NCBI GenBank assembly: GCA_022482495.1
Contig: JAKVPA010000002.1
Span: 1-64,000 of the forward strand
Reading direction: 5' to 3'
Length of the DNA stretch: 64,000 bases
DNA from: Sphaerochaeta sp.
GTDB lineage: Bacteria > Spirochaetota > Spirochaetia > Sphaerochaetales > Sphaerochaetaceae
Below the pieces are notes generated by a model. That model had not been told where the DNA came from, ran no database searches, and saw only the letters and a list, made by a program, of their open reading frames with translations. Positions 1,073-54,552 of the stretch are shown piece by piece. Both the position numbers and the translations under genes were made by a program. Each line of letters begins with the position of its first letter. The stretch's first letter is position 1.

Positions 1073-1488
1073 GGGGTTTGGTGCTGAATGAATTCCGAGG
1101 TGAACGTGATGGCTTTGACGGAGAGTTCCTCGCACAGATGCGGGGGATCGTTGTCAGTAAACCCACCGGGACGAAGTTCCCTGCACCGAAGCGAGCCGAA
1201 CGTCTGGGTGAACGCCTCGGCAAACTGGTTGCAAACGGAAACGACCGCCTCCTCCGACCAGCCTTTCTCGGTGAAATAGACCCCGAGGAACAGCAGGGAA
1301 CCTTCCACCAGACCACACTGGTCGCGGTGTCCACCGGCGCCATGCATCCCCACCGCGGCTTCCCACAGTTGCGGCTGAAGCTCCACGCCGTACAGATTGG
1401 ACAGCACCCACAGCGCGGTGCGGGCGCAATTCCAATCGTGGACGTAATAGGCATCATGCACTTGTTCCGCAATAGTAGGTTGTCGCAT
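1069..1488 (-). CDS. C_GCAxxG_C_C-family redox protein
   Basis: A 139-aa soluble protein. The family signature is visible: a Cys in NCARTALWVL near residue 21, then the core motif CGLVEGSLLFLG near residues 58-69 (family form C-G-x-x-x-G), a Cys in LRCRELRP and a C-terminal LC pair partner. Proteins of this family (PF09719) are small Cys-rich putative redox-active proteins of anaerobes; no reaction is established. The only available ATG has no Shine-Dalgarno and lies 6 nt after a -10-like TATCTT, so the transcript is probably leaderless. Upstream and divergent is the CrtO-like gene; downstream is tRNA-Ala. Confidence 0.75.
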   Translation of the reverse strand: MRQPTIAEQVHDAYYVHDWNCARTALWVLSNLYGVELQPQLWEAAVGMHGAGGHRDQCGLVEGSLLFLGVYFTEKGWSEEAVVSVCNQFAEAFTQTFGSLRCRELRPGGFTDNDPPHLCEELSVKAITFTSEFIQHQTP

Positions 1489-1494
1489 ACCATC

Positions 1495-1523
1495 AAGATA
1501 CGAAAAGGGAAAACCAACGGCAA
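1495..1523 (-). promoter_or_regulatory. Leaderless-type promoter of the redox-protein gene
   Basis: Minus strand TTGCCG (1523-1518), 17-nt spacer, TATCTT (1500-1495), then only GATGGT before the ATG at 1488. Transcription would begin at or next to the start codon. Confidence 0.5.
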
Positions 1524-1524
1524 G

Positions 1525-1553
1525 TTGCCAATTCGGACGGTTTCTCGTATAGT
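1525..1553 (+). promoter_or_regulatory. Promoter of CrtO-like gene
   Basis: TTGCCA (1525-1530), 17-nt spacer, TATAGT (1548-1553). A strong Shine-Dalgarno AAGGAGG precedes the ATG at 1572. It is back to back with the promoter of the divergent redox-protein gene; the -35 boxes are one base apart. Confidence 0.6.
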
Positions 1554-1571
1554 TTTGGAAGGAGGCCCCTG

Positions 1572-2108
1572 ATGCCTGACGTGAAGGATATCCTGTTGCT
1601 CATCAAACCATCACTGCAGGTGTTCTGTTTCATCGTGCTCACCCAGTTCGCCGCCTCCCTGGTCGTCGACCATATGGACGAAAAGAGCCTTGAGCGATGG
1701 CGTCAGATTTTGCACAGCCACAACTGGGAGAAGAACGGAGATGTCTACCAACAGTTCTTCGATGTGAAGAAGTGGAAGGACCGTCTGCCGGAAATGGGGG
1801 ACAACTCCCCCAACCAGTTCCGCAAGACACGGATGAACACCACCGACCCGATGTACCTGTACATCTTCATCCTGGAGACGGTCCGGGCGGAGATGTGCCA
1901 TGGACTGGCCTTCATCTTCGGCATTCTGGTACTGATGAACAACCCCACCGTCCCCGGCCTGTTCTTCCTCCTGCTGTACATCACGCTGGTCAACGTCCCG
2001 TTCGTCATCATCCAGCGGTTCAACCGCCCCCGCCTGGAGCGGCTTCTGGAACATATCGTCAAATCCCACCAGGGCGTGTTGATCCCCAAGGAAAGCCTGT
2101 ACACTTGA
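1572..2108 (+). CDS. CrtO-like membrane acyltransferase family protein
   Basis: A 178-aa membrane protein with one N-terminal helix and two to three C-terminal helices. It shares the hallmarks of the glycosyl-4,4'-diaponeurosporenoate acyltransferase (CrtO) family: a KKWKDRLPE segment near residue 70, LETVRAEMCH near 115, and VNVPFVIIQRFNRPRLERLL near 150. Staphylococcal CrtO acylates a glycosylated carotenoid, but no other carotenoid gene is seen here, so the real acceptor may be a different lipid. The start follows a good Shine-Dalgarno. The next gene downstream is an esterase, consistent with a lipid-modification context (inference). Confidence 0.72.
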   Translation: MPDVKDILLLIKPSLQVFCFIVLTQFAASLVVDHMDEKSLERWRQILHSHNWEKNGDVYQQFFDVKKWKDRLPEMGDNSPNQFRKTRMNTTDPMYLYIFILETVRAEMCHGLAFIFGILVLMNNPTVPGLFFLLLYITLVNVPFVIIQRFNRPRLERLLEHIVKSHQGVLIPKESLYT

Positions 2109-2123: not shown

Positions 2124-2152
2124 TTGCGTGCCGTCCGATGTTGGAATACCAT
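2124..2152 (+). promoter_or_regulatory. Leaderless-type promoter of esterase gene
   Basis: TTGCGT (2124-2129), 17-nt spacer, TACCAT (2147-2152), then 8 nt to the ATG at 2161. It supports 2161 as the start in preference to an in-frame GTG at 2128, which has its own GAGGGGG ribosome site at 2113-2119. Confidence 0.45.
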
Positions 2153-4760: not shown

Positions 4761-6018
4761 ATTCGTTCTGCACGATCTCCCGGTTGATCTCCTTGTCCAG
4801 CCGCTCATCCTCCGTGATGATCACCTTGCTCTCGTCGAAGAACGTCGAGCCAAGGAAACAGCCAAGCATCAACGCCAGGAAGAACGAGATCATGTGGCGG
4901 AACTCCAGGATCGTCTCGCTCATGGTGAACACCAGGATCAACGCTCCCACACCCTGGGAGAAGAACACCATGTGGCTCTGCACGATCTCCTCCGAATTGG
5001 GATATCCCATCTCAGCCGCGTACTGCAGGCCAATGGGGATGGCGCTGAAGGCGAAGAACCCGAAGATCACCGCACCGGCGTAGGACATGGCGGCATTCCG
5101 GGAGAAATAGAGCAGCAACATGCCGGGCAGGCTCAATCCCAGACAGCCGGCGAACAGCACTTTCCGTTTGCGTACCGCGTCGGATACGGCAGGCAGGATG
5201 AACGCTCCGACGGCGCCAGAGAGGATCATCACCAACCCAAAGCGCGCCGTAGAACCCAGATTCAGTTCGGCGGCGATGAAATCGATCTTCACCAGCATCG
5301 CCATGATCACGCCCCAGGAGATGGCGAATACGGTGATCATCCCACGTACCGTACCGATTCTCCCGATGGTGAGGAACGCCTTGAGATACGACTCATCGGC
5401 AGGCTCGACCAACGACGAAGGCGTGGGCGGGTTTTCCCGGATCAACAACGCGCCGACAACGGCGAACCCTGAGGAGATCATGCTGTAGATGGCGACCAGG
5501 CGGGGGAACGAACCATCCCGCATCAGATACGGGGAGAAGACGACGTTGAACGCGATGGCGATGTACTGGCAGGCGGAGACCAGACCGACGGCCATCCCCC
5601 GCTCCCGGATGGGGAACCATCGGGCGACGGTGACCGTCGCCATGCTGAGGATGATGGCCTGGGCCATGGACAACACCGCCTGGCTGACCAAAAGGAACGT
5701 GGGGGACTGGACTTCCAGCACCTTCATCGCGCTTCCCAGCACAACGAGAATCGAGCTGATGCGAAGCGATATGGTGATGCCTGCCTTGTGGATCAATAGG
5801 GAAGCGGGAATGGCGAAGACGATGAACCCACCCATGTAGATGATGGACATCAGGTCGACGATGGAGTACCTGCCCCGTTGCCAGGAGGCGTCATAGAACC
5901 GGTTGGCGACTCTTCCGATGGGCGAAAGCGCCATCCATTGGATCTCCACGGCAAACACCAGCAGAATCAAGGCAAGAAGGATCAGCCATCGATACCGATA
6001 CGCGCGGACGCTTCTCAT
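4759..6018 (-). CDS. Major facilitator superfamily transporter
   Basis: A 419-aa protein with about 12 hydrophobic helices. An MFS loop is visible in the first half (RWFPIRERGMAVGLVSACQY near residue 140) with a charged mid-loop (residues about 200-215) separating two six-helix halves. The substrate cannot be read from sequence. A -10-like TATGAT lies 8 nt before the ATG at 6018, pointing to a leaderless transcript. It is divergent from the nitroreductase gene, with overlapping promoters. Confidence 0.85.
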   Translation of the reverse strand: MRSVRAYRYRWLILLALILLVFAVEIQWMALSPIGRVANRFYDASWQRGRYSIVDLMSIIYMGGFIVFAIPASLLIHKAGITISLRISSILVVLGSAMKVLEVQSPTFLLVSQAVLSMAQAIILSMATVTVARWFPIRERGMAVGLVSACQYIAIAFNVVFSPYLMRDGSFPRLVAIYSMISSGFAVVGALLIRENPPTPSSLVEPADESYLKAFLTIGRIGTVRGMITVFAISWGVIMAMLVKIDFIAAELNLGSTARFGLVMILSGAVGAFILPAVSDAVRKRKVLFAGCLGLSLPGMLLLYFSRNAAMSYAGAVIFGFFAFSAIPIGLQYAAEMGYPNSEEIVQSHMVFFSQGVGALILVFTMSETILEFRHMISFFLALMLGCFLGSTFFDESKVIITEDERLDKEINREIVQNE

Positions 6019-6026: not shown

Positions 6027-6055
6027 ATCATAGTCAAAAGCAACCGATTTGTATA
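6027..6055 (-). promoter_or_regulatory. Leaderless-type promoter of the MFS gene
   Basis: Minus strand TATACA (6055-6050), 17-nt spacer, TATGAT (6032-6027), 8 nt to the ATG at 6018. It overlaps almost completely with the plus-strand promoter at 6031-6059. Confidence 0.45.
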
Positions 6056-6059
6056 TCAT
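6031..6059 (+). promoter_or_regulatory. Leaderless-type promoter of the nitroreductase gene
   Basis: TAGTCA (6031-6036), 17-nt spacer, TATCAT (6054-6059), then GAAACC and the ATG at 6066. The same GAAACC-ATG-ACAGAAG junction occurs at the nth gene (45718-45733). Confidence 0.45.
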
Positions 6060-6065: not shown

Positions 6066-6848
6066 ATGACAGAAGATATCAGACAAACATTGCTCCAACG
6101 CAGAAGTGTCCGGGCATACCTGGACAAACCGATCTCACCGGAGGACAAAGCCTCCATTTTCCAGGCGATTCTCCGCGCCCCCACGGCGGGAAACATGGCC
6201 TTGTACTCCGTCATTGATGTGCAGGATCAGGAAACCAAACAGAAACTTTCCGCCATCTGCGACCATCAGGAGATGATCGCACACGCGCCGCTTTGCCTGG
6301 TGTTCGTCGCCGATTACCAGAAGTGGGTGGACTACTTCCATGCCGAATCCAGCCCGCAGAAGAGCGGCAAACAGTGGAGGGATCCCGGCTATGGGGATCT
6401 GCATCTGGCCATCCAGGACTCCATCATTGCCTGCCAGAGCGGCGTGGTGATGGCAGAGAGCCTGGGCATCGGCTCCTGTTACATCGGGGATGTGATGGAA
6501 AACGGCGAGGAACTACAGAAGCTGCTGGACCTTCCCCGTTTCACCATGCCCTCCTGCATGGTCATCATGGGCTACAAGCATCCCGCGCCCAACGCCAAGC
6601 TCAAGGCCCGTTGCCCGGAGGAAGACATGTTCATGACGGACCGCTACCGGAGACGGGACAAAGAGGGGTTGGAACACGCCTACGCCCAGCAGGAAGATCA
6701 GGACCGTGCCGCAAACCGGCTCCCCTTCGGGAACACCGGAACCATCGCCGACTACTACTACGGCAGGAAGTACATCTCCCCCTTCATGGAAGAGATGAAC
6801 CGTTCCGTCGCCTGGTGGTTCGACCGCTGGAAAGAAGCGCTCTCATGA
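6066..6848 (+). CDS. Nitroreductase-family flavoprotein
   Basis: A 260-aa FMN-dependent oxidoreductase. The N-terminal RRSVRAYLDKPIS (residues 12-24) and APTAGNMALYSVI are the usual FMN-binding elements, and the ESLGIGSCYIGDV segment near residue 137 matches the second conserved region. It likely reduces nitro compounds, quinones or flavins with NAD(P)H; the physiological substrate is unknown. The C-terminal 60 residues (DYYYGRKYISPFMEEMNRSVAWWF) extend beyond the minimal family length. The stop overlaps the next start by 4 nt, so the GNAT gene is translationally coupled. Confidence 0.88.
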   Translation: MTEDIRQTLLQRRSVRAYLDKPISPEDKASIFQAILRAPTAGNMALYSVIDVQDQETKQKLSAICDHQEMIAHAPLCLVFVADYQKWVDYFHAESSPQKSGKQWRDPGYGDLHLAIQDSIIACQSGVVMAESLGIGSCYIGDVMENGEELQKLLDLPRFTMPSCMVIMGYKHPAPNAKLKARCPEEDMFMTDRYRRRDKEGLEHAYAQQEDQDRAANRLPFGNTGTIADYYYGRKYISPFMEEMNRSVAWWFDRWKEALS

Positions 6849-9775: not shown

Positions 9776-10428
9776 CTCATGTCGCTGTTGATGAATGGAA
9801 GGGAAGAAAGCAGACGCGCCGCCATCCCGGCGATGCACTCCGCCCCATACAGGGAAAGGTGGGTGTTGTCCTCCACGCCATCGGGATAGTTGGGCCAGAT
9901 CCCCTGGTTGAACAACCTTCGGCTTGCCTCTTCCCCAAGCGCATCCAGCAGGTGGAGCGTCGGGGTGGTGAGATCGAAGAACGGGACGCCCAGACGAACC
10001 GCGACGGCGGCCATCGCCCAGGGGTATTCCCCCAGGGTATCGTACGCTTTCCCCTCCCGAAATCTTCTTCGTTCGATGGAGGAAAGCAGGACGGGAAACG
10101 CACCCTTCATCCGGATCCGGGTGATCATATACGCCAGATTCTCCCCATAGGTGGTCCATGGCCAGGTGTGGCGTGCCTCATCCGGTTTGTCCTCATTGTG
10201 GCCGAACTGGATGACCACCCAATCCCCGGAGGAAAGAGAAGAAGCAAGACGTTCAAACACTCCGCCAGAGAGCGCCAGACGGCTGCTCAGCCCATTGACG
10301 GCGCGGTTGTCCAACCGCCAGCCCCAGGCGAGGAATGGAGCGAAACACATCCCCCAGCCGGCCTCCGGCCACGCATTTGGCATCTTCGTCGCGCAGGTGG
10401 AGTCTCCCAGAAGAAATACGGTACCCAT
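9772..10428 (-). CDS. SGNH-hydrolase, rhamnogalacturonan acetylesterase-like
   Basis: A 218-aa enzyme with no signal peptide. Block I is LLGDSTCA with nucleophile Ser10, block III is QFGHNEDKPD (His77-Asn78) and block V is EDNTHLS (Asp187, His190). The GDSTCA start and DNTHLS end are typical of CE12-type acetylesterases that deacetylate pectin-derived or other sugars. It would act in the cytoplasm on imported oligosaccharides or other acetylated sugars (inference). The ATG follows TACACT by 6 nt, another leaderless-type start. It is coupled to the gene ending at 8951. Confidence 0.8.
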   Translation of the reverse strand: MGTVFLLGDSTCATKMPNAWPEAGWGMCFAPFLAWGWRLDNRAVNGLSSRLALSGGVFERLASSLSSGDWVVIQFGHNEDKPDEARHTWPWTTYGENLAYMITRIRMKGAFPVLLSSIERRRFREGKAYDTLGEYPWAMAAVAVRLGVPFFDLTTPTLHLLDALGEEASRRLFNQGIWPNYPDGVEDNTHLSLYGAECIAGMAARLLSSLPFINSDMR

Positions 10429-10434
10429 GGCTCC

Positions 10435-10463
10435 AGTGTACGAGAAAGAACCTGATGTTGCCA
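10435..10463 (-). promoter_or_regulatory. Leaderless-type promoter of SGNH gene
   Basis: Minus strand TGGCAA (10463-10458), 17-nt spacer, TACACT (10440-10435), GGAGCC, ATG at 10428. The -35 box is weak. Confidence 0.35.
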
Positions 10464-10471
10464 GAGGAATC

Positions 10472-10501
10472 AAAAAAGGACCCTCCCCGAAGGGAGAGTC
10501 C
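10472..10501 (-). terminator. Terminator of pyruvate:ferredoxin oxidoreductase gene
   Basis: Minus strand GGACTCTCCC (10501-10492), loop TTCG, GGGAGGGTCC (10487-10478), then six T (10477-10472). It is a 10-bp stem with one G-U pair. Confidence 0.92.
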
Positions 10502-10526
10502 CCAAAATCCTGATTCAGGCAACGCC

Positions 10527-13500
10527 TTACATCAGCGGTCCGACTTTCTCGTAGAAGCTCAAGCGATGCTTTGCATCCTCGGCTGCCTTTGCGAAGAGTT
10601 CGTCCGCCTGCGCGGGGTTGACCTTGCGAAGCGAAGCGTACCGTACCTCTCCATCCAGGAAGTCCTGATAGGGTTTGGTTGCAGGAGCGGTCTCCCACTT
10701 GAACTTCTCCCCTTCGGGCTTGTCCGGGTTGTAGCGGTACAACGGCCAGTATCCGCACTCCACAGCCTTCTTCTCTTCTTCCTGGCTGTAGCGCATATCC
10801 TTCACGCCCTGTTCCTTGCACGGAGCATAGCAGAAGATGATGGCCGGGCCATTGTAGGCGATCGCTTCCTGCATCACCTGCTGGGCCTGGTTGCGGTTGG
10901 CACCCAGAGCGATGGACGCCACGTACACATAGCCGTAGCTCATGCACATGAAGCCCATGTTCTTCTTGCCCAGCTTCTTGCCGCTGGCCGCGAACTTCGC
11001 GACTGCCGCAAGCGGCGTGGACTTGGAAGCCTGCCCGCCGGTGTTGGAGTACACCTCGGTGTCCAGTACCAGAATCTTCACGTTCCGGCCGCTGGCCACG
11101 ACGTGGTCGACGCCGCCGTATCCGATATCGTATGCCCATCCATCACCACCGATGATGAACACCGTCTTGTCGGAGAAGTAATCCTGCAGCTCGGTGAGCT
11201 TGGAGAGGATGTACTTCATCTCCGGCGTCTTGGCCTTCTTCACCGCTTCGGCGAGAACCTTCTGGGTCGCTTCCTGAGCGTCGATGGAAGCCTCCGTCGT
11301 ATCGTCCCACAGCTCCTCGTTCTTGGCGATGGCAGCCAGCAGGTCTTTGTCAGCATCCGGCATCGCCTTGAACTGGTCGATGTAGATCTTCAGCTGGTGG
11401 CGGTTGCTGTCCACGGCAAGGCGCATACCCAGACCGTACTCGGCGTTATCCTCGAACAAGCTGTTGCCCCATGCGGGACCACGGCCATCCGGGCGCTTGG
11501 CATAGGCGGTTACCGGGAAGGTGCCGCTGTAGATGGAGGAACAACCGGTCGCGTTGGCGACGATCATCCGCTCTCCGCAGATCTGGGTCGCCATCTTGAT
11601 GTACGGCGTCTCTCCGCATCCAGCGCACGCACCGCTGAACTCGAACAACGGCTGTCTGAGCTGCAGACCCTTGATGGTCTTCACATCAGAACCGTCCGTC
11701 AGGTACGGCAGGCTGTCAAAGAACTGGCTCGCCTCATCCTGACCGTCAGCACGGGCCTGAGCGAGCGGGACGAACTTCAGGGCCTTCTCCTTGGTCTTGG
11801 TGGCCTTGTTGAAGCCCAAGCAGGTCTCGACACAAACGCCGCATCCCTGGCAATCCTCAGGATACACCTGAATGCGGAAGCGAAGGTTCTTGTCGTTCTT
11901 GAACGAAGAGACCAGCGTATCGAAGTTCTTCGGCGCCTTGGCCAGATCCTCCGGGGTGATCTGCTTGACACGGATCGCCGCGTGCGGACAAGCCTGTACG
12001 CACTGGTTGCACTGGATACAGTTGGAGCTGATCCACTCAGGTACGAACGGCGCGACACCACGCTTCTCCAGCTTTGCGGTGGCCGTCGGAACGGCACCAT
12101 CGAAGCTCATCGCGGAAACGGGGATATCGTTACCCTTCATGTGCATGATCGGCAGCATGACGTCCTTGGCGTAGGTGGAGGCATCCTTTCCGATCAACGG
12201 CGCGGGCTCATACCACTTGGTCGGCTTGGCCGGAACGGGGATTTCCTTCAACGCATCGCTGGCGGCGTCAACCGCGGCCCAGTTCATCTTGACGATCGAC
12301 TCTCCTTTCTTGGAGAAGGTCTTCTCGATGTAATGCTTGATCAGGTCGATGGCTTCCTTCTGGTCGGGAATCACCTTGGAGATGGCGAAGAACGCCGCCT
12401 GCATGACGGTGTTGATCCTCGAACCAAGGCCGACCTTCTCGCTGATGGCGAGCGCGTCGATGCTGTAGAAGTGGATGTGCTTCTTGATGATCTGCTCCTG
12501 CATCTCTTTGGTCAGCGTCTCGAACACCTTGTCCGAAGGCACCTGGCTGTTCAGCAGGAACACACCACCGTCCTTCAACGGGGCGAGCATATCATAGCGG
12601 CCGACATAGGCGGGGTTGTGGCACGCGACGAAATCGGCGCGGTCGATCAACCACGGCATGTCCAGGTTGCCCTCACCGAAGCGAAGATGGCTGACGGTGA
12701 TACCGCCGGACTTCTTCGAGTCGTAGGCGAAGTACGCCTGGGCGTTCATCTTGGTGTTGTCGCCGATGATCTTTACCGAGTTCTTGTTCGCGCCGACCGT
12801 TCCGTCGGAGCCAAGGCCCCAGAACATACAGGCAACGACGCCCTTCGGAGCGACATCAATCGGATCCCCGACGGGGATGGAATGATGCGTCACATCGTCG
12901 TTGATGCCGACGGTGAAGTTGCCGAACGGATCATTGCTGGCCAGGTGGTCATACACCGCCACGGCGTGGCTGGGCGGGAAGTCCTTGCTGGACAGACCGA
13001 AGCGTCCGCCGATGACCAGAATGTCCTTGCGGCCCATCTGCTCCAGAGCGGTGACGACATCCAGGTACAACGGCTCGCCGAGGCTGCCCGGTTCCTTGGT
13101 GCGATCCAGGACAGCGATCCGCTTGACGCTCTTGGGGATGGCGTTGACGAACGCATCCGCCTTGAACGGGCGATACAGCCTGACCTTCATCACACCGGTC
13201 TTCCGACCATGCTCGTTGAGGTACTTGCTTGCCCATGTCATCGTGCTGGCTCCACTGCCCATGACGATGACCATATCCGTCGCGTCCGGATCTCCGACAT
13301 AGTCGAACAGATGATACTGCCGGCCGGTGACCTTGGCGACTTCGTCCATGTATTTCTGTACGATGCCAGGAACGGCGTCATAGTACTTGTTCACCGTTTC
13401 ACGGCCCTGGAAATAGACATCCTCGTTCTGCGAAGCGACCTTGAGCATCGGATGCTCCGGGCGCTGGGCGCGAGCGCGGAACCGCTCGATGTATTCCTCG

Positions 13501-14090
13501 TTGACCAGCGGCTTGATGTCCTCATACGAAATATCCTCGACGGTCTCGTACTCGTGGGAGGTGCGGAACCCATCAAAGAAGTTGAGGAACGGAACCTGCG
13601 CTTCCAACGTGGAAAGATGAGCGACAAGCGCCATATCCATGGTTTCCTGGATACTGCCGCCGACCGTCATCGCGAATCCGGTGCTCCGGCACGCCATGAC
13701 ATCACTATGGTCACCGAAGATGGAAAGGGACTGCGCGGCCAATGAACGAGCGGACACGTGGAAGACGGTCGGAATCATTTCACCGGCGATCTTGTACATA
13801 TTCGGAATCATCAGCAACAATCCCTGGCTGGCGGTAAACGTGGTGGTCAGTGCACCAGCAGCGAGAGAACCATGCACCGCACCAGCGGCACCAGCCTCGG
13901 ACTGCATCTCCATGATCTCCACCTTCTTACCCCACAGGTTCTTGCGACCGGCAGCGGCCCAAGAATCCGCATATTCCCCCATCGGGGAACTCGGGGTGAT
14001 CGGGTAGATCGCGGCAACTTCGCTGAAGGCGTATGCAATCTGCGCGGCAGCGGTATTGCCATCGATAGTAACCAATTTCTTGTTACCCAT
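10527..14090 (-). CDS. nifJ: Pyruvate:ferredoxin (flavodoxin) oxidoreductase, single chain
   Basis: A 1187-aa enzyme converting pyruvate and CoA to acetyl-CoA, CO2 and reduced ferredoxin. All domains are in one chain: pyrimidine-binding half with AAIYPITPSSPMGEYAD (about 25-41), the gamma-type domain, a central two-cluster ferredoxin domain (CIQCNQCVQACP and CQGCGVCVETC, about 680-760), a CAGCGETPY Cys pair for the proximal cluster, and the TPP/Mg motif GGDGWAYDIGYGGVDHV with NTGGQASKSTP. Length is normal. The start at 14090 (MGNKKLVTIDG) follows GGAG; an upstream in-frame start is unlikely. It is monocistronic, with its own promoter, 5' hairpin and terminator. Confidence 0.97.
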   Translation of the reverse strand: MGNKKLVTIDGNTAAAQIAYAFSEVAAIYPITPSSPMGEYADSWAAAGRKNLWGKKVEIMEMQSEAGAAGAVHGSLAAGALTTTFTASQGLLLMIPNMYKIAGEMIPTVFHVSARSLAAQSLSIFGDHSDVMACRSTGFAMTVGGSIQETMDMALVAHLSTLEAQVPFLNFFDGFRTSHEYETVEDISYEDIKPLVNEEYIERFRARAQRPEHPMLKVASQNEDVYFQGRETVNKYYDAVPGIVQKYMDEVAKVTGRQYHLFDYVGDPDATDMVIVMGSGASTMTWASKYLNEHGRKTGVMKVRLYRPFKADAFVNAIPKSVKRIAVLDRTKEPGSLGEPLYLDVVTALEQMGRKDILVIGGRFGLSSKDFPPSHAVAVYDHLASNDPFGNFTVGINDDVTHHSIPVGDPIDVAPKGVVACMFWGLGSDGTVGANKNSVKIIGDNTKMNAQAYFAYDSKKSGGITVSHLRFGEGNLDMPWLIDRADFVACHNPAYVGRYDMLAPLKDGGVFLLNSQVPSDKVFETLTKEMQEQIIKKHIHFYSIDALAISEKVGLGSRINTVMQAAFFAISKVIPDQKEAIDLIKHYIEKTFSKKGESIVKMNWAAVDAASDALKEIPVPAKPTKWYEPAPLIGKDASTYAKDVMLPIMHMKGNDIPVSAMSFDGAVPTATAKLEKRGVAPFVPEWISSNCIQCNQCVQACPHAAIRVKQITPEDLAKAPKNFDTLVSSFKNDKNLRFRIQVYPEDCQGCGVCVETCLGFNKATKTKEKALKFVPLAQARADGQDEASQFFDSLPYLTDGSDVKTIKGLQLRQPLFEFSGACAGCGETPYIKMATQICGERMIVANATGCSSIYSGTFPVTAYAKRPDGRGPAWGNSLFEDNAEYGLGMRLAVDSNRHQLKIYIDQFKAMPDADKDLLAAIAKNEELWDDTTEASIDAQEATQKVLAEAVKKAKTPEMKYILSKLTELQDYFSDKTVFIIGGDGWAYDIGYGGVDHVVASGRNVKILVLDTEVYSNTGGQASKSTPLAAVAKFAASGKKLGKKNMGFMCMSYGYVYVASIALGANRNQAQQVMQEAIAYNGPAIIFCYAPCKEQGVKDMRYSQEEEKKAVECGYWPLYRYNPDKPEGEKFKWETAPATKPYQDFLDGEVRYASLRKVNPAQADELFAKAAEDAKHRLSFYEKVGPLM

Positions 14091-18561: not shown

Positions 18562-18627
18562 TTGAAATATTACATGTTTCGCATAATATATGAAAGAATA
18601 TGCAGAACCTGTATTGTATGGTACGAT
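18562..18627 (+). promoter_or_regulatory. Two candidate promoters of the PPDK-N/receiver gene
   Basis: Distal: TTGAAA (18562-18567), 16-nt spacer, TAATAT (18584-18589). Proximal: TATGCA (18599-18604), 17-nt spacer, TACGAT (18622-18627), with the ATG 6 nt later at 18634. The proximal one would give a leaderless mRNA; no Shine-Dalgarno precedes the ATG. Confidence 0.4.
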
Positions 18628-29683: not shown

Positions 29684-29941
29684 GATGTAAGATTTTTTAA
29701 GAAATATATGTATTTCATTATATAGTAAATAATAAACTCATGACACCAACAATTGGAATAGGTGAGAATTTTCAGTGATGAGGTTTCCTACACTTTCGTT
29801 TTTTCTCTCACACCTTTGACTTCCGTCACTGGATACGCTTGTTTCTTGTTGTTCGTAAACCGATTTAGTATCGTGAATTATGGTACGCTTCGCCCACAGT
29901 TGTATCTTCCTCGTTTGCGGTTGGCAGTGTACACTGTCTGC

Positions 29942-36493: not shown

Positions 36494-36530
36494 CGCTGCC
36501 TCTCTTGCCGTTTTCATGGTATGATAGGCC

Positions 36531-37140: not shown

Positions 37141-37168
37141 TTGCATTTCCTTGGGAAATCGCTATAGT
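37141..37168 (+). promoter_or_regulatory. Leaderless-type promoter of MFS gene
   Basis: TTGCAT (37141-37146), 16-nt spacer, TATAGT (37163-37168), then 8 nt to the ATG at 37177. Confidence 0.5.
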
Positions 37169-39551: not shown

Positions 39552-40314
39552 TGCCCCTGCACTGTACTCCGAAACGAGGGAAAAGCCAAGACGGAACTAC
39601 CAGACGGGGACGCTCCCGCACACTGGTGAACGAGGTGACGCTTTTCCCGTCCACATAGATGACGGCCACCAATCCCCGTTCCCTGCACAGGAAACGATGA
39701 TACCCGTCGGAGAAGGTCATCTGAACGGGGCTGACCCCATCGTACCAGAAGTCGTCATCATCCTCACGTTCGGCGATCCAACGCCCGACGGGGATGTCCT
39801 GCACAGCCACGGGAACACGGGAAAGCGCCTGGATGGAGGATTCCTTTACGTGGTTGTTCAGAAGATCGGCGGCAAGCCTGGCCATATCCAGATCCCACAG
39901 GGAGACATCCCGCGCCTGAAGACGGGTCTGCAATTGGTCCGTATCCAGCAGGGAAAGGGTGGATCCATACGTACCGGAGAGATCGAGCAGATACCCGGCC
40001 AGCCTTCCCCGCTCCTGCGTCAACACCACTTCTTTTTGGGATGCGTCCAACCACCCCCCGAACGGTTGGCATTCACCGAGCGGCGTGACGGTGACGAACA
40101 CCGTCCTTCCGTACGGAACGTATACGGTGGCGTTCCGCTTTCCTTCATCCAACCGTGTTTCCTGACCCGTCGAGGTAACGAGGCTCATCCACATCAGGTT
40201 TTCCGATGCTTCCCAGCGATGAGCGGGGATACGTACCGTCACCGGCCGGACGGCAAGCGGATGGTACGAGCAGGAAGAAAACAGGAGAAACAACAGGAAA
40301 ACGGTCGTCTTCAT
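39535..40314 (-). CDS. Lipoprotein of unknown function
   Basis: A 259-aa protein. MKTTVFLLFLLFSSC has a lipobox ending in LFSSC, so Cys15 should be lipidated. The mature part is predicted beta-rich and has no recognised domain; VTVRIPAHRW near residue 25, ARLAADLLNNHVKESSIQAL and the C-terminal VIYVDGKSVTSFTSV are landmarks. It resembles other treponemal lipoproteins only in general layout. A 26-residue upstream in-frame extension is unlikely. Its 3' end carries the sdaA promoter. Confidence 0.7.
   Translation of the reverse strand: MKTTVFLLFLLFSSCSYHPLAVRPVTVRIPAHRWEASENLMWMSLVTSTGQETRLDEGKRNATVYVPYGRTVFVTVTPLGECQPFGGWLDASQKEVVLTQERGRLAGYLLDLSGTYGSTLSLLDTDQLQTRLQARDVSLWDLDMARLAADLLNNHVKESSIQALSRVPVAVQDIPVGRWIAEREDDDDFWYDGVSPVQMTFSDGYHRFLCRERGLVAVIYVDGKSVTSFTSVRERPRLVVPSWLFPRFGVQCRGNAVTP
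39561..39589 (-). promoter_or_regulatory. Promoter of sdaA
   Basis: Minus strand TTGGCT (39589-39584), 17-nt spacer, TACAGT (39566-39561), then 9 nt to the ATG. It lies inside the lipoprotein coding sequence. Confidence 0.45.
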
Positions 40315-43742: not shown

Positions 43743-45644
43743 TCACCCGGCGAAGAATACGCCGTGCTGCCGAAGCGTCTGGGTGGCTCCCTTCAGCTCC
43801 TCCACCACATCACGATAGGCCGCTTCATTGGGAATCTCCGTTTCGATGAAGAACGAATACTCCCACGGCTTGCCCAGAATCGGCCGGCTTTCCAGTTTCT
43901 TCATGTTGAGTTTGTGGACGGACAAGACGTGCAGCGCGTCAAACAACGCGCCCGGCTTGTCGTTCACGCTGAACGACATGACGGCCCGGTTGGGGATGTT
44001 GGAGGAGATGAACGTCGCCTCGTTCTCCTCACGGCAGATCACATAGAAACGGGTGTAGTTGCTGGGGTTGGTCTCGATGCCTTCACGCAGCACCTCCATC
44101 TTGTGGTACGCCGCCGCCGGAGCTCCGGCGATGGCGGCCTTGCTCCGGTCTCCCGTCGCCTTGATGAACGCCACGGCTCCCGCCGTATCGTAGTAGGAGA
44201 CAGGCTTGGCCTGGGGCAGTTCCTTCTCCAGGAACCGGGCGCACTGGGCCAGCCCCTGGGGATGGGAATACACCTCGCGGATATCTTCCATCTTGGTACC
44301 GGGGATGACCACCAGGCTGTGGATGATCCTGACCTGCTGCTCTCCCACCACTTTGATGCCCGGATGGAGCGCCAGAAGATCCAGCGTGTCATAGATCGTG
44401 CCGCCCAGGGTGTTTTCCACCGGAACGACACCGTACTTCACTTCCCCTTTGTCCACCGCATCGAACACATCCTTGAACGTCGGGCAGGGGCGTACCGCTG
44501 TTTTTTCGCCGAACAGGCGGGTGACGGCCAATTCGCTGTAGGCGCCACGCTCTCCCTGGAACGCCACGGCATCCTGCATCTGCGGGGTGACATCCACCTC
44601 GGTGGTGGTGATCAACGAGGTGCGGGGGATCCGCTCCAGGCTCTTGCCGACCACCGGAGCCAACGCCTCCACATCACGCATCAGTTTCTCGAACTGCTGG
44701 GGATACAGTGACTGGGGGCCGTCGCTCAACGCGACATCCGGATGGTCATGCACCTCGACGATGATGCCTGACGCGCCGCTGGAGATGATGGCAAGGCTCA
44801 TCGGGTTGACCAGATCCCTCAGGCCGGTGGCGTGGGACGGATCCCCGATGACCGGCAGGTGGGTCAGTTTCTGCACCACCGGGATGGCGGAGCAGTCCAA
44901 CGTGTTGCGGGTGGCGCGCTCATAGGTGCGGATACCCCGCTCGCACAGCACCACCTGGTCGGTGCCGCTGCTCATCAGATACTCGGCGGCCATCAACCAC
45001 TCCTCGATGGTGGCGGCGATGCCCCGTTTCAATAGGACGGGCATCCCGGTCTTCCCCACCGCTTTGAGAAGCTCGAAGTTTTGCATGTTCCGCGCGCCGA
45101 TCTGGAACATGTCCACGTAGTCCTTCATCATGTCGACGTTGGATGGACTGACGATCTCGGTGGTCACCGGCATATCGTACTTCTCACCGGCTTCCTTCAG
45201 GTATTTCAACCCTTCCTCGCCCAATCCCTGGAACGAGTACGGGCTGGTCCGCGGTTTGAACGCTCCGCCACGGAGCATCACCGCGCCGGCGTCCCGGACC
45301 AGGGATGCGATCCGCATGATCTGGTCGCGGCTCTCCACGGCGCACGGACCGGCGATGGCGACGATCCGCCCTCCGCCGATCTTCACCTTCCCCACCGAGA
45401 CGATGGTGTCTTCCTTCTTCAGTTCCCGGCTGGCAAGCTTGTAAGGTTTGGAGATGGGGATGACCTTCTCCACGCCGGGGAGCAGTTCCACTTCCCGGGG
45501 ATCGATCCTGCAGACACCAACGGCGCCGAACACCGTCTCCTCAGCTCCGACAATCTCATGGACCTGCAGTCCTTTGGAAGAGAGGAAACTCCTCAAATCA
45601 TGTTTCTGCTGGTCGGTGATGTTTTTGTTCAGTACGACAATCAT
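43743..45644 (-). CDS. aroF-pheA: DAHP synthase fused to prephenate dehydratase
   Basis: A 633-aa fusion for the first and a late step of phenylalanine synthesis. Residues 1-75: ferredoxin-like regulatory domain as in Thermotoga-type DAHP synthase. 80-345: DAHP synthase with IAGPCAVESRDQIMRIA, LRGGAFKPRTSPYSFQGLG, GARNMQNFELLKAVG, VLLKRGIAATIEEWL, DPSHATGLRDLV and a metal-binding EVHDHPDVALSDGPQSL. 365-540: prephenate dehydratase with VAFQGERGAYSELA and catalytic NYTRFYVI. 550-633: ACT domain with GALFDALHVLS and LESRPI, the Phe-binding pair. Both steps may thus be inhibited by Phe. The start at 45644 (MIVVLNKN) has TAGCAT 7 nt upstream. Confidence 0.93.
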   Translation of the reverse strand: MIVVLNKNITDQQKHDLRSFLSSKGLQVHEIVGAEETVFGAVGVCRIDPREVELLPGVEKVIPISKPYKLASRELKKEDTIVSVGKVKIGGGRIVAIAGPCAVESRDQIMRIASLVRDAGAVMLRGGAFKPRTSPYSFQGLGEEGLKYLKEAGEKYDMPVTTEIVSPSNVDMMKDYVDMFQIGARNMQNFELLKAVGKTGMPVLLKRGIAATIEEWLMAAEYLMSSGTDQVVLCERGIRTYERATRNTLDCSAIPVVQKLTHLPVIGDPSHATGLRDLVNPMSLAIISSGASGIIVEVHDHPDVALSDGPQSLYPQQFEKLMRDVEALAPVVGKSLERIPRTSLITTTEVDVTPQMQDAVAFQGERGAYSELAVTRLFGEKTAVRPCPTFKDVFDAVDKGEVKYGVVPVENTLGGTIYDTLDLLALHPGIKVVGEQQVRIIHSLVVIPGTKMEDIREVYSHPQGLAQCARFLEKELPQAKPVSYYDTAGAVAFIKATGDRSKAAIAGAPAAAYHKMEVLREGIETNPSNYTRFYVICREENEATFISSNIPNRAVMSFSVNDKPGALFDALHVLSVHKLNMKKLESRPILGKPWEYSFFIETEIPNEAAYRDVVEELKGATQTLRQHGVFFAG

Positions 45645-45651
45645 ACGGAAA

Positions 45652-45680
45652 ATGCTAGAATGTTCAGCGGAAAAAAACAA
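45652..45680 (-). promoter_or_regulatory. Leaderless-type promoter of aroF-pheA
   Basis: Minus strand TTGTTT (45680-45675), 17-nt spacer, TAGCAT (45657-45652), then 7 nt to the ATG. Confidence 0.45.
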
Positions 45681-45711
45681 GCGGGGGATGAAACGGCATC
45701 CCCTGTTCGGG

Positions 45712-45717
45712 TATACT
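45712..45717 (+). promoter_or_regulatory. -10 box of nth
   Basis: TATACT followed by GAAACC and ATG at 45724. The spacing and the junction are the same as for the nitroreductase gene at 6066. No good -35 box is seen. Confidence 0.4.
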
Positions 45718-45723
45718 GAAACC

Positions 45724-46386
45724 ATGACAGAAGCAGCATGGGACGCAATGTTCGACCGGATGCGGAACGCAGTCGTCCAGGCGGGAGGGGATCTTCCCTC
45801 CGTCTCCCAGATCGCCCGGGAAAAACAGGATCCCTACCGGGTGCTGATCAGCACATTGCTGTCGCTCCGGACCAAAGACCAGGTGACGCTGGAAGCATCC
45901 CGAAGGCTGTTCGCCCTGGCGGACACCCCTCAGGCGATGGTGCGCCTCAGCCAGAAAGAAATCGAACAGGCGATCTTCCCCGCAGGCTTCTACCAGCGCA
46001 AAGCCCAGCAGATCCTCTCCATCTCCCACCTGCTGATCGATCGGTACGGCGGAGCCGTGCCGGCCGACCAGAAGGCGTTGATGGATCTTCCCGGCGTGGG
46101 AATCAAGACGGCCAACCTGACGCTGAACCTGGGTTTCGGCATCAACGCGCTCTGCGTCGACTGCCATGTGCACCAGATCGCCAACCGGATGGGCTGGGTG
46201 AAGACCAAAAGCCCGGAAGAGACGGAAAAAGCGCTGCAGAGCGTCATGCCACCCAAACACTGGATCCCGATGAACGAACTGCTGGTATCCTTCGGACAAC
46301 TGGTCTGCACCCCGGTCAGTCCCAAATGCTCCCGTTGCCCGGAAGCGGGCCACTGCCCAAAGATCGGAGTTACGAAAGCGCGATGA
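45724..46386 (+). CDS. nth: Endonuclease III
   Basis: A 220-aa DNA glycosylase/AP lyase for oxidised pyrimidines. The helix-hairpin-helix LMDLPGVGIKTANLTLNLGF (about 118-137) has the catalytic Lys, and NALCVDCHVHQIANRMG (about 140-156) has the catalytic Asp (the usual Thr after it is Cys here). The C-terminal 4Fe-4S cluster is C-x6-7-C-x2-C-x5-C (VCTPVSPKCSRCPEAGHC). The start at 45724 was chosen from homolog length and the -10 box; a Met 12 codons upstream is possible. It is divergent from aroF-pheA. Confidence 0.94.
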   Translation: MTEAAWDAMFDRMRNAVVQAGGDLPSVSQIAREKQDPYRVLISTLLSLRTKDQVTLEASRRLFALADTPQAMVRLSQKEIEQAIFPAGFYQRKAQQILSISHLLIDRYGGAVPADQKALMDLPGVGIKTANLTLNLGFGINALCVDCHVHQIANRMGWVKTKSPEETEKALQSVMPPKHWIPMNELLVSFGQLVCTPVSPKCSRCPEAGHCPKIGVTKAR

Positions 46387-51915: not shown

Positions 51916-52646
51916 AGCGAAACCACCTCCAAATCTCCCGCCACGGCAAGCTTGTCACCGCACAGCGCCAGAAATCCCTTTACAGTATGCAATATTTTCG
52001 CCTGCCGCGCCACCGAAGGGAGGTCATTCTCCCCATGCACCCGGTTGCAGAACGCCGTGGCGTACGCATCGGCCAGGGCCGCGTCCTGACAGGCGACCAT
52101 CACGGCATCGGCAGATCCGAAACTCAACGAAGGTCCCGTCGTACCGCTGGAGGTGGCGATTCCGATCGGACAGGATGAAGGAAGAACACGGATCCCGATT
52201 CTCCCATCCAGCGGGTTTCCCGGTGCGACCACCTTCACCACGATGGATTCCCGGACATCCACAAACAGATCCCCGCCGTTCTCCACCACCACTTCATCCA
52301 GAGAGAACCGCCGCTTCAGCGCCGATCCCACCTCTTGGGCGATGGCTCCGGCCACCGAGGCCATCGGGCCGACCCCGGCGGCTCTTCCCGCCTGGAGCAT
52401 TGCAGCCAAGAGAGGTGTTTCTCCATCGCCGGCAAGCGGCGTCAGGCTTGTCAGGAATCGAGGGTCAGAGGCGGAACGGATCTGGCTACGAAGTGACACC
52501 ACCAGGTGTCGTGCCGCATCCCGGATCCGGCCGGAATCCACAGAGGGCGTCCATCCGATGAAAAGATCGGTTTCCTGCACACTGAACGTGACGGTGGAAA
52601 ACCGTCCATCCAACATTCCGTTCCGATAGGTGCGTTCCTGATACAT
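51912..52646 (-). CDS. UPF0280 (COG2122) protein, ApbE-like fold
   Basis: A 244-aa protein. LPSSCPIGIATSSGTTGPSL (about 177-196), ENGGDLFVDV and CNRVHGENDLPSVARQAKIL are the family hallmarks. In anaerobes this family travels with COG1900 and NIL-ferredoxin proteins and has been linked genetically to homocysteine synthesis; its exact reaction is not settled. Here it sits between NIL-ferredoxin (1-nt overlap, TAATG) and metH (ATGA), the expected context. Confidence 0.88.
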   Translation of the reverse strand: MYQERTYRNGMLDGRFSTVTFSVQETDLFIGWTPSVDSGRIRDAARHLVVSLRSQIRSASDPRFLTSLTPLAGDGETPLLAAMLQAGRAAGVGPMASVAGAIAQEVGSALKRRFSLDEVVVENGGDLFVDVRESIVVKVVAPGNPLDGRIGIRVLPSSCPIGIATSSGTTGPSLSFGSADAVMVACQDAALADAYATAFCNRVHGENDLPSVARQAKILHTVKGFLALCGDKLAVAGDLEVVSL

Positions 52647-53044
52647 TACGCCACGGAGAACAACCGGAGCGGACAGGCGTGGACGCACAGCCCGCAGACC
52701 ACGCACCGGGATGGGTCGTACACCAGATGGGCATCCTTGTCCAGCGACAGCGCCCCGCTCTGGCAAACAGCGGTACAGGAACCGCAGTGCACGCATTTAT
52801 CCTGCACAAACAGGATGTCAGAGGCCATCGGAGAGACGGTGACTCCATAGCTTTCCAGCCATGCCACGGCATCTTTCAGATGGGAGGCCGTTCCCTCAAA
52901 CTCCACCACCAGCATGCCGCCCTTGCCGCTTGCCACATCGGCGTTGAGGATGTTGATCTCCAGATCATACGACTTGACCAGTTTTCCCACCACCGGCTTG
53001 TCCACCATCCGTGGAGAGAACCGAAGCGTATACCTGCGTTTCAT
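52646..53044 (-). CDS. NIL-domain ferredoxin
   Basis: A 132-aa protein. Residues 1-75 form a NIL domain (YTLRFSPRMVDKPVVGKLVK, then LEINILNADVASGKGGMLVV); residues about 80-132 hold two 4Fe-4S clusters (CVHCGSCTAVCQSGA and CVVCGLCVHACP). In Methanosarcina the equivalent protein is the reducing partner of the COG1900 homocysteine-forming enzyme. It overlaps the HcyBio gene by ATGA and the UPF0280 gene by 1 nt. Confidence 0.92.
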   Translation of the reverse strand: MKRRYTLRFSPRMVDKPVVGKLVKSYDLEINILNADVASGKGGMLVVEFEGTASHLKDAVAWLESYGVTVSPMASDILFVQDKCVHCGSCTAVCQSGALSLDKDAHLVYDPSRCVVCGLCVHACPLRLFSVA

Positions 53045-54198
53045 ACTTCCTCCTTTTGCCGCGGCTCCAACGGCCGCACAGAGCTTTCCGTGGGAAATGA
53101 CGCCACCGGTTCGGTAAGCAGGAATTTCCCATCCTTGATCCATCCGGAGAGAATACCGGCGATCTCCCGGGCTTTTGCCAGGGAGGACATCGGGGCGGTA
53201 TGGACCGTCCGGCCGTCAAGCTGAATGCGTCCGCTGCGCAGCTGTTCATAGTTGGTCCGGGCGATGGCGGGATGCCCGCTCTGGGCATAGTCACACACCA
53301 CCGTCTCGATCTCCCGGTTGCTGATGGAAAGCCGCGTCGCCATTTCCTCGTCCAGCACCGGGATGGGGATCCCCAGTCCGACGAACATCGACACGCCGTA
53401 CTTGTAGAAGTACGCGGCGCGCAGATATTCGGTGGTCATCTCCTTGGCGTTCCCCACCACGGCCAAGGTGGCCGCTCCTCCAAGGGGAATGCCTTTGTCG
53501 TTCCGCTTCTGCATCGTATTGAACTGGGTGCCGTTCCAGACGACGTATCCCGTCGCCCCCCCAAGGAAGATCCGTGTCCCGATGCCAATGGTCCGCAGGT
53601 ATGGATCGTTGAGCAGTGGGGAAAGCTCGCCGGAAGTGGAATAGGTCACGTTGTTCCGATGGGGCAGCAGGCACCCCATGTAGGTGTACATGATGGCATC
53701 CGACCCATTGGTCGCCGCCGCGTAGTTCTGGTAGGCGTTGCGGGGATTGAACAGGTAGAACTCGTTGACCGTATCCTTGGTGATCCAGGTGTCGATCTCC
53801 TTGGTCGGATAGCAGTCCGTCCCTTTTCCCCGTGCATGGAGATGCACCTGCTTGCCGTCGACCAGATCCTGGATGACGTTGGCGCCGCCGTAGGCGTTGT
53901 CGTACCGGCTCTCCGCCGTGGCTCCGATGTAGCTGTCCACCGCGGCCAGCCCTTCGTAGCAGTCCACCCCGTTGATCTCGATCTCTTCCATCCGGATTCC
54001 CGGCTTCCAATGACCGAAGTTGATCACCGCGCCGGATGAGCACATCGGCCCGAACGTCGCCGTTGTGACGACATCCACTTCCTTGGCCAAGGTGGCGCAG
54101 TCCTTTTCCTTGGCAAGACGGGTGAATTCCTCGGCGGTCATCACCACCACCGAACCGTTCGCGATCTTTTCGTTGATTTCCCTAATGGTCTTGGCCAT
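53041..54198 (-). CDS. Homocysteine biosynthesis protein (HcyBio, COG1900/DUF39)
   Basis: A 385-aa enzyme proposed to form homocysteine directly from aspartate semialdehyde and a sulfide source, replacing the O-acyl-homoserine route. TIREINEKIANGSVVVMTAE, FGPMCSSGAVINFGHW with Cys53, HARGKGTDCYPTKEI with Cys129, YMGCLLPHRNNVTYSTSGEL and IGTRIFLGGATGYVVWNGTQ are typical. The two Cys are candidate sulfur carriers. It is unlike the fused HcyBio-CBS forms: it ends without CBS domains and relies on the separate NIL-ferredoxin next door. Start overlaps the upstream gene by 17 nt. Confidence 0.92.
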   Translation of the reverse strand: MAKTIREINEKIANGSVVVMTAEEFTRLAKEKDCATLAKEVDVVTTATFGPMCSSGAVINFGHWKPGIRMEEIEINGVDCYEGLAAVDSYIGATAESRYDNAYGGANVIQDLVDGKQVHLHARGKGTDCYPTKEIDTWITKDTVNEFYLFNPRNAYQNYAAATNGSDAIMYTYMGCLLPHRNNVTYSTSGELSPLLNDPYLRTIGIGTRIFLGGATGYVVWNGTQFNTMQKRNDKGIPLGGAATLAVVGNAKEMTTEYLRAAYFYKYGVSMFVGLGIPIPVLDEEMATRLSISNREIETVVCDYAQSGHPAIARTNYEQLRSGRIQLDGRTVHTAPMSSLAKAREIAGILSGWIKDGKFLLTEPVASFPTESSVRPLEPRQKEEV

Positions 54199-54517
54199 CC
54201 GTTCCTCCGATCGTCATCACGTTGATCAAATGATAGGCAGGTACTTCGTACGGATGGGCGCGCTTCAGCGCTTCCACCGCCTGGGCGGCGTGCAGTTCGT
54301 CCACCACCACCTCGATGCGGTACTCCACGACCTTTTCCAGCTTTCCGACCTTGCCGAGAAACGGATCACTCCCAAACAACGGGCGGAACTGCCCTTCCCC
54401 TTTGACCGTCCAGCAACAGTGGTCATAGCCGTCCATACATCCGCATCCTGCGTCAAACAACGCCTGCTTGACCGCCTCCAGATGGGATTCGGGCACATAC
54501 GTTACCAGTACATACAT
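54182..54517 (-). CDS. YqfO/NIF3-type C-terminal domain protein
   Basis: A 111-aa protein equal to the stand-alone middle domain of YqfO (NIF3 family, PII/CutA-like fold). MYVLVTYVPESHLEAVKQAL, then FDAGCGCMDGYDHCCWTVKG and RAHPYEVPAYHLINV are typical; the Cys-rich GCGCMDGYDHCC is unusual and could bind metal. Stand-alone versions have no known role. It is the first gene of the methionine operon and overlaps HcyBio by 17 nt. The ATG at 54517 is 6 nt after a -10-like TACCAT, with no ribosome site. Confidence 0.78.
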   Translation of the reverse strand: MYVLVTYVPESHLEAVKQALFDAGCGCMDGYDHCCWTVKGEGQFRPLFGSDPFLGKVGKLEKVVEYRIEVVVDELHAAQAVEALKRAHPYEVPAYHLINVMTIGGTDGQDH

Positions 54518-54523
54518 ATGGTC

Positions 54524-54552
54524 ATGGTATGCCGTTCTTTCCTCAGGAGCAA
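54524..54552 (-). promoter_or_regulatory. Leaderless-type promoter of the methionine operon
   Basis: Minus strand TTGCTC (54552-54547), 17-nt spacer, TACCAT (54529-54524), GACCAT, ATG at 54517. With a leader of at most one or two nt there is no room for a SAM riboswitch, so control would have to be at initiation. Confidence 0.5.

What the first reader, a model, noticed from the sequence alone, without database searches (positions are those of the whole stretch)
1488..54552. Recurring leaderless promoter layout: TANNNT box 5-10 nt before the ATG
Seen directly: for many first-in-operon genes the ATG is preceded by a TANNNT hexamer at 5-10 nt and no Shine-Dalgarno. Examples are the genes starting at 1488 (TATCTT-N6), 2161 (TACCAT-N8), 6018 (TATGAT-N8), 6066 (TATCAT-N6), 10428 (TACACT-N6), 18634 (TACGAT-N6), 29942 (TACACT-N6), 36531 (TATGAT-N5), 37177 (TATAGT-N8), 39551 (TACAGT-N9), 45644 (TAGCAT-N7), 45724 (TATACT-N6) and 54517 (TACCAT-N6). 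Several have a TTG-type -35 box 16-17 nt further up. Other genes (153, 1572, 4540, 14090, 18455) have ordinary leaders with GGAGG sites, so two classes coexist. This layout is known from Deinococcus and actinobacteria; I am not aware of it being described as common in spirochaetes.
Basis: partly seen in the sequence, partly recalled or inferred. Interest (0 to 1): 0.75.

Follow-up and report, generated by a model that had tools for sequence, protein, structure and literature searches.

The report
Leaderless gene promoters in a spirochaete
In this spirochaete a minority of genes have their promoter pressed right against the start codon, so their messenger RNA should begin at or within a few letters of the first codon with no ribosome-binding leader; this way of starting genes is known elsewhere, but here it looks widespread through one class of spirochaetes.

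Summary
In 850 kb of the genome, 48 of 367 operon-first ATG genes have TANNNT 6 or 7 nt before the ATG, against 8.3 in dinucleotide shuffles; in-operon genes give 4 of 218, against 1.5. Only spacings 6-7 are clearly enriched, so five of the 13 examples (spacings 5, 8, 8, 8, 9) are weak individually. Features not used for selection agree: TTG -35 boxes 16-18 nt upstream (31/67 versus 34/1108 intragenic boxes), pyrimidine at -1 (64/67 versus 167/303), SD-like 4-mers at background. Start codons are ATG, not GTG. The layout recurs in orthologues and in most sampled genomes of the same class, but hardly in Borrelia-sized genomes and weakly in most of the rest of the phylum. Best reading: sigma-70 promoters making leaderless or near-leaderless mRNAs beside an ordinary SD class. 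No RNA data exist here. Leaderless genes were already predicted in some spirochaetes (PMC3160421) and mapped in Leptospira interrogans (PMC5243855), so this extends a known kind. Estimate: about 10% of operon-first genes, 5% of all genes.

The parts
1495..1500 (-). -10 box TATCTT, 6 nt before ATG at 1488; -35 TTGCCG at 1518-1523 (spacing 17)
   Evidence: in the enriched spacing; product C_GCAxxG_C_C protein
2147..2152 (+). -10-like TACCAT, 8 nt before ATG at 2161; TTGCGT at spacing 17; GGAG between box and ATG
   Evidence: ambiguous, spacing 8 and SD-like 4-mer present
6027..6032 (-). -10-like TATGAT, 8 nt before ATG at 6018 (MFS transporter)
   Evidence: in-frame stop 6 nt upstream of the ATG; 47 bp between the divergent ATGs at 6018 and 6066
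6054..6059 (+). -10 box TATCAT, 6 nt before ATG at 6066 (nitroreductase family)
   Evidence: no TTG -35
10435..10440 (-). -10 box TACACT, 6 nt before ATG at 10428 (GDSL lipase family)
   Evidence: Pfam domain begins at residue 7 of this start; the open frame extends 717 nt upstream and the gene caller chose another start, so the start is less certain; no TTG -35
18622..18627 (+). -10 box TACGAT, 6 nt before ATG at 18634 (PPDK_N protein)
   Evidence: no TTG -35
29930..29935 (+). -10 box TACACT, 6 nt before ATG at 29942 (YhhN family)
   Evidence: TTCCTC at spacing 17
36520..36525 (+). -10-like TATGAT, 5 nt before ATG at 36531 (pentapeptide repeat protein)
   Evidence: spacing 5 not enriched in the genome sample; in-frame stop at -6
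37163..37168 (+). -10-like TATAGT, 8 nt before ATG at 37177 (MFS transporter); TTGCAT at spacing 16
   Evidence: in-frame stop at -12
39561..39566 (-). -10-like TACAGT, 9 nt before ATG at 39551 (serine dehydratase); TTGGCT at spacing 17
   Evidence: would be a very short leader rather than leaderless
45652..45657 (-). -10 box TAGCAT, 7 nt before ATG at 45644 (DAHP synthase-prephenate dehydratase fusion); -35 TTGTTT at 45675-45680 (spacing 17)
   Evidence: -35/-10 close to the ATG and no SD in many Sphaerochaetales-like and other Spirochaetia orthologues, at spacings 6-10; the two same-genus orthologues have a TANNNT only at 10 nt
45712..45717 (+). -10 box TATACT, 6 nt before ATG at 45724 (HhH-GPD DNA glycosylase), divergent to 45644, 79 bp between ATGs
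   Evidence: no TTG -35; the orthologue in a same-genus genome has a purine-rich SD-like stretch instead
54524..54529 (-). -10 box TACCAT, 6 nt before ATG at 54517; -35 TTGCTC at 54547-54552 (spacing 17)
   Evidence: product without Pfam match

Best explanation
These are housekeeping (sigma-70-type) promoters placed so that the -10 hexamer ends, as a rule, 6-7 nt before the ATG and transcription starts at or within a few nt of the A of the ATG. The mRNA is leaderless or nearly so and would be translated from its 5' AUG (inferred: by 70S ribosomes, without SD pairing). They serve a minority of operon-first genes and coexist with ordinary leadered genes that use SD sites; the 16S rRNA keeps its anti-SD tail. 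Shown from sequence: position, -35 partner, -1 pyrimidine, SD absence, ATG starts, operon-first bias, partial conservation. Inferred: the exact RNA 5' end and the mode of translation.
For: Spacing peak at 6-7 nt and in operon-first genes: 48/367 versus 8.3 shuffled; in-operon 4/218 versus 1.5; internal in-frame ATGs 39/4072, 24.4 expected from other spacings. Held-out replication. In 451 non-operon genes, in-frame ATGs carry the box at d6/7 in 69/721 against 304/16021 other codons; in frame 69, out of frame 9. Unselected -35: TTG at spacing 17 in 24 and 18 in 6 of 67; 31/67 at 16-18 versus 34/1108 intragenic boxes. Pyrimidine at -1: 64/67 versus 167/303 other ATG genes. SD-like 4-mer 10/67 versus 174/384 in the rest and 781/4061 at internal ATGs. 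Whole genome, strict TTG/-10/Y-ATG pattern: d6 73 (reversed control 12), d7 43 (control 10), d11 8 (control 10), GTG in place of ATG at d6 9 (control 13). Same-genus orthologues with starts aligned by homology: box at d6-8 in 6/12 leaderless-type versus 2/49 others, Fisher p = 4e-4. DAHP synthase: -10 at d6-8 in 16/29 Sphaerochaetales-like loci, all 16 with TTG -35, SD 0/29; non-spirochaete orthologues 0/9 with SD 8/9; in 27 located orthologues of family and class (own included) box at d6-8 in 11, only at d9-10 in 11, SD in 3. Several products align to full-length models from residue 1-6 (UppP, Lgt, BirA, YgiQ), so there the ATG is the likely true start. Anti-SD CCTCC present in 16S.
Against: No RNA 5'-end or ribosome data. 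36 of 67 have no TTG -35 at 16-18. Chance background is not nil: 11.9 of 50 d6/7 genes expected from other spacings. Orthologue box retention is only 6 of 12, and before aligning starts the test was not significant (3/12 versus 5/46, p = 0.34). In 13 of 29 Sphaerochaetales-like DAHP loci the box at d6-8 is missing, nine of them by eye showing TAGCNT at 9-10 nt, which would give a short leader; the two same-genus orthologues have a box only at 10 nt, and 3 of 27 orthologues carry SD-like 4-mers. A 200 kb sample of family member G171 showed nothing (3/66, 2.6 expected), although its whole-genome strict count is 55 versus 12 at d11.
Confidence: 0.9

Rival explanations
1. Sub-variant of the best explanation: for most of these genes transcription starts 1-4 nt upstream of the ATG, giving a stub leader without SD, rather than exactly at the A.
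For: Boxes at d8-10 exist; in DAHP orthologues the only box is at 9-10 nt in 11 of 27.
Against: In the window's genome the peak is at d6-7, and d8-10 is not above shuffles (16 versus 11.7); pyrimidine at -1 in 64/67 fits a start at A+1.
Confidence: 0.3
2. AT-rich or S1-type translation signal just before the ATG, not a promoter.
For: SD is lacking; S1-type proteins match in 149 of 149 genomes (23 above the curated cut-off); AT-rich signals are discussed for other phyla (PMC5397173, passages read).
Against: TTG -35 at 17 nt and an upstream extended -10 G were not selected; in-operon genes lack the box.
Confidence: 0.03
3. Chance: AT-rich intergenic regions plus selective listing by the reader.
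Against: z = 12.8 at d6/7, replicated in held-out DNA and in most sampled genomes of the class.
Confidence: 0.02
4. The boxed ATG is a wrong start; transcripts are leadered and translation begins downstream at an SD-led codon.
For: The gene caller placed some starts 6-60 nt away from the boxed ATG.
Against: The box is tied to in-frame ATGs (69 in frame, 9 out); several N-termini fit protein models.
Confidence: 0.04

Closest known systems
TA-led (leaderless) bacterial genes of Zheng et al. 2011 (PMC3160421, passages read)
   Same: TANNNT about 12 bp upstream of the start; only the operon-proximal gene can be leaderless; Spirochaetes listed at 3.9% mean in 6 of 18 genomes
   Different: Here the lineage is Sphaerochaetaceae (inferred) and wider Spirochaetia, with clear -35 boxes; the fraction (about 5% of called genes) lies within their range
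-10-motif leaderless expression of Deinococcus-Thermus (PMC12340547, passages read)
   Same: -10 box adjacent to the ORF, -35 optional, coexistence with RBS genes; tested there by eGFP reporters
   Different: About 30% of ORFs there; about 5% of called genes here; not tested experimentally here
Leaderless mRNAs of Leptospira interrogans (PMC5243855, passages read)
   Same: Spirochaete phylum; 184 and 170 genes with TSS at the start codon at 30 and 37 C
   Different: A different class by recalled taxonomy; that study reports no E. coli-like consensus apart from sigma-54 sites, while here TTG and TANNNT are plain
Mycobacterium tuberculosis leaderless transcriptome (PMC3898074, search listing only)
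   Same: Paper holds both 'leaderless' and 'TANNNT'; the layout is recalled to be the same
   Different: From recall, GTG leaderless starts are used there; here none above control

Membership tests
Bacterial leaderless (TA-led) genes | -10-like TANNNT at fixed distance just upstream of the start, above background | tested here: met
   48/367 versus 8.3 shuffled at d6/7; held-out sample
Bacterial leaderless (TA-led) genes | Restricted to operon-first genes | tested here: met
   In-operon 4/218 versus 1.5 shuffled
Bacterial leaderless (TA-led) genes | No SD site | tested here: met
   10/67 versus 174/384; internal ATG background 781/4061
Bacterial leaderless (TA-led) genes | mRNA 5' end at the start codon | not testable with these tools
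   No RNA data; -1 pyrimidine 64/67 is indirect
Bacterial leaderless (TA-led) genes | Translated from the 5' start codon | not testable with these tools
   Needs reporters, ribosome profiling or N-terminal proteomics
Sigma-70 promoters | -35 TTGACA-like box 16-18 nt upstream of the -10 | tested here: met
   As a class: 31/67 with TTG versus 34/1108, though 36 of 67 lack it; TTGAC in many DAHP orthologues

The most novel reading that the evidence does not exclude
Leaderless sigma-70 promoters are an old, class-wide trait of Spirochaetia (Sphaerochaetales, Spirochaetales, much of Treponematales), ATG-only, with gene-by-gene switching to and from SD leaders, and lost or strongly reduced in Borrelia-like genomes and in a Treponema-pallidum-sized genome.
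Probability: 0.55. Interest if true: 0.5.

Novelty: new member of a known kind. Interest (0 to 1): 0.4.

Why it matters
It extends leaderless initiation, reported as concentrated in actinobacteria, Deinococcus-Thermus and archaea (PMC3160421), to a class of spirochaetes at a modest but recurrent level, and makes class-level gain or loss of the mechanism testable. In practice, start-codon callers that do not model these genes can misplace them (the caller here moved 1488, 6066 and 45724).

Tried and rejected
GTG and TTG leaderless starts: no signal (first sample 0 of 26 GTG and 0 of 15 TTG operon-first genes, second sample 0 of 19 and 0 of 14; 9 GTG sites versus 13 control genome-wide).

Orthologue test without aligning starts: not significant (3/12 versus 5/46); repeated with starts aligned by protein homology and the box allowed at d6-8 (6/12 versus 2/49, one edge case dropped). 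I saw the first result before refining.

A script to find DAHP starts in unnamed relatives failed for most loci because it scanned only the given strand; it was redone on both strands, which located 27 of 30 (L149, L151, L152 not located). One search covers 74 of the 80 loci: L093, L097, L098, L100, L101 and L102, all non-spirochaete by title, were left out (three match only from residue 17, three were not entered).

The first pool comparison counted the DAHP gene that had been used to fetch the loci; removes it and is the one reported. Class comparison: family f5 (Borrelia-sized genomes) was split off after seeing the counts; with it the class ratio d6/d11 is (2398+191)/(624+169) = 3.3 instead of 3.84. 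Group labels were assigned by me from titles and identity to the query. A Treponema pool gave 6/47 versus 3.7 expected, not a clear excess. Literature searches.
Full report
WHERE THE WINDOW LIES. It is contig 2, bases 1-64000, of a 2.25 Mb, 14-contig genome, 58% G+C in the window. Its DAHP synthase is nearest to those of records titled Spirochaetales, Spirochaetaceae or Sphaerochaeta. Two same-genus and 22 same-family genomes were returned as relatives. The match in one same-genus genome (G149) has the coordinates of a record titled Spirochaetales bacterium isolate SUG1938, and that in one same-family genome (G151) starts where a record titled Sphaerochaetaceae bacterium has it, so family Sphaerochaetaceae is inferred. 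The 16S rRNA ends in GGATCACCTCCTTT, an intact anti-SD.

CHECK OF THE LISTED SITES. All 13 boxes and spacings are as written. Eight lie at 6-7 nt (1488, 6066, 10428, 18634, 29942, 45644, 45724, 54517), one at 5, three at 8, one at 9. TTG at 16-18 nt occurs in six. Pfam domains begin near the proposed start for 45644 (residue 1), 39551 (3), 10428 and 37177 (7), 6066 (10) and 6018 (15); for 1488, 29942, 45724, 36531, 2161 and 18634 the best domain begins at residue 20 or later and says little, and 54517 has no match.

STATISTICS. A gene caller written for this purpose uses codon usage and start codon type, never upstream sequence. First sample (window plus 386 kb): of 174 operon-first ATG starts, d6 = 19 and d7 = 9, with about 3 expected per spacing; in-operon 3 of 115; internal ATGs 23 of 2204. 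A second 400 kb gave d6 = 12, d7 = 3, d8 = 6 of 164. Against dinucleotide shuffles: 48 of 367 versus 8.3 (z 12.8), in-operon 4 of 218 versus 1.5; spacings 8-10 give 16 versus 11.7. A box at spacing 20-21 is also above shuffles (20 versus 8.2), which fits promoters of genes with short leaders. Scanning all ATGs after a TTG/TANNNT pair regardless of genes, d5, d6, d7 and d8 count 16, 32, 27 and 13, the other spacings mostly 8-15 with single values up to 21.

UNSELECTED FEATURES. In 67 leaderless-type genes of 451 non-operon genes, TTG appears at spacing 17 (24) or 18 (6), 31/67 at 16-18 versus 34/1108 intragenic boxes; an extended -10 G two bases before the box is at 58%; the base before ATG is C or T in 64/67 versus 167/303 other ATG genes, as expected if A is the first transcribed base. 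SD-like 4-mers: 10/67 versus 174/384. Genome-wide strict pattern: d6 73, d7 43, d11 8, reversed controls 12, 10, 10; GTG at d6 9 versus 13. Conservative size of the class: 10.3% of operon-first ATG genes, 5.1% of called genes.

CONSERVATION. In a same-genus genome the box (d6-8) is present in 6 of 12 leaderless-type genes versus 2 of 49 others. The misses include apparent switches, e.g. the glycosylase gene facing the DAHP gene has a purine-rich stretch before its ATG in G149. For DAHP synthase (74 of 80 loci): Sphaerochaetales-like 16/29 with box at d6-8 and TTG in all 16, SD 0/29; other Spirochaetia 17/27 (11 with TTG), SD 12/27; Treponema 0/9, SD 9/9; non-spirochaetes 0/9, SD 8/9. In 27 located orthologues from the window's family and class (own included): box at d6-8 in 11 (10 with TTG), only at d9-10 in 11, SD in 3. 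So in this gene the promoter stays close to the ATG and SD is mostly absent, but the spacing drifts between 6 and 10 nt; the two same-genus copies are at 10.

BREADTH. Strict d6 versus d11 counts in 149 genomes of the phylum: class without family f5, 27 genomes, 2398 versus 624; f5 (six genomes of 1.0-1.8 Mb, Borrelia-like by size, a recalled judgement), 191 versus 169; rest of phylum, 116 genomes, 6535 versus 4521 (ratio 1.45; five families reach 2.4-3.4). One 1.1 Mb genome in the family I take for Treponema-like has 8 versus 3 (reversed control 8). Among relatives, the window's family (25 genomes) gives 1672 versus 379, with 24 of 25 above ratio 1.5; 16 other class genomes (three of them also in the 149) 970 versus 326, 15 of 16 above 1.5. 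Gene-caller checks on samples: G104 22/157 (4.6 expected), G132 14/91 (6.2), G171 3/66 (2.6), G056 4/48 (6.2), G098 10/126 (19.1). Pools of named loci without the DAHP gene: Sphaerochaetales-like 27/197 (10.8), other Spirochaetia 22/161 (6.7), Treponema 6/47 (3.7), non-spirochaetes 2/96 (5.4).

WHICH GENES. Twenty of the 31 strict-promoter genes of the sample were scanned; 15 match NCBIfam models, among them RNase HII, signal peptidase I, UppP, ProA, Lgt, a YgiQ radical SAM protein, an RlpA protein, CobT and BirA above a curated cut-off, and LysR-, ScpA- and TrkH-like proteins below it; 5 match none. No functional theme was tested for.

LITERATURE. PMC3160421, PMC5243855, PMC12340547 and PMC5397173 were read in passages. 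Zheng 2011 defined the same TANNNT signal and counted Spirochaetes at 3.9% in 6 of 18 genomes; the six may include Spirochaetia members, which I could not see. Leptospira interrogans dRNA-seq found 184 and 170 genes with TSS at the start codon. Zhong 2025 describes the Deinococcus-Thermus case with reporters and mentions a bacteria-wide scan whose per-phylum figure I could not see. The search for leaderless with Sphaerochaeta returned nothing and with Treponema nothing judged relevant from the listing; the library holds open-licence papers only.

VERDICT. Sequence evidence makes leaderless or near-leaderless transcription the best reading (0.9). It is an ordinary mechanism in an under-studied lineage; the spread through the class is the part for which I found no report.

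Noticed in passing
window 45644-45724; L132, L133, L135, L136, L138, L139, L141: The DAHP synthase-prephenate dehydratase gene faces an HhH-GPD glycosylase gene 79 bp away; a glycosylase motif lies divergently upstream in 7 of 27 located orthologues (the motif used misses the window's own copy), so the pair seems conserved in part of the family.
   Followed up: partly
L113 about 12424-12498 and the G149 orthologue: A BirA gene and a divergent neighbour, both leaderless-type, share a conserved AATGTAAACATT palindrome between them, a possible biotin operator overlapping both promoters.
   Followed up: no
window 10335-13745 (+): A 1136-codon open frame lies antisense to the pyruvate:ferredoxin oxidoreductase gene (10527-14090, -); probably a codon-usage artefact.
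   Followed up: no
G000 C5:190262-190299 and C12:9448-9485; C5:186616 and C12:5802: Identical strict-pattern matches 3,646 bases apart on both contigs point to a duplicated stretch near a contig end, or an assembly artefact.
   Followed up: no
phylum table, G024 of family f10, families f11 and f39: A few genomes outside the class also show a strong d6 excess over d11 (101 versus 22; 98 versus 41; 213 versus 62).
   Followed up: no
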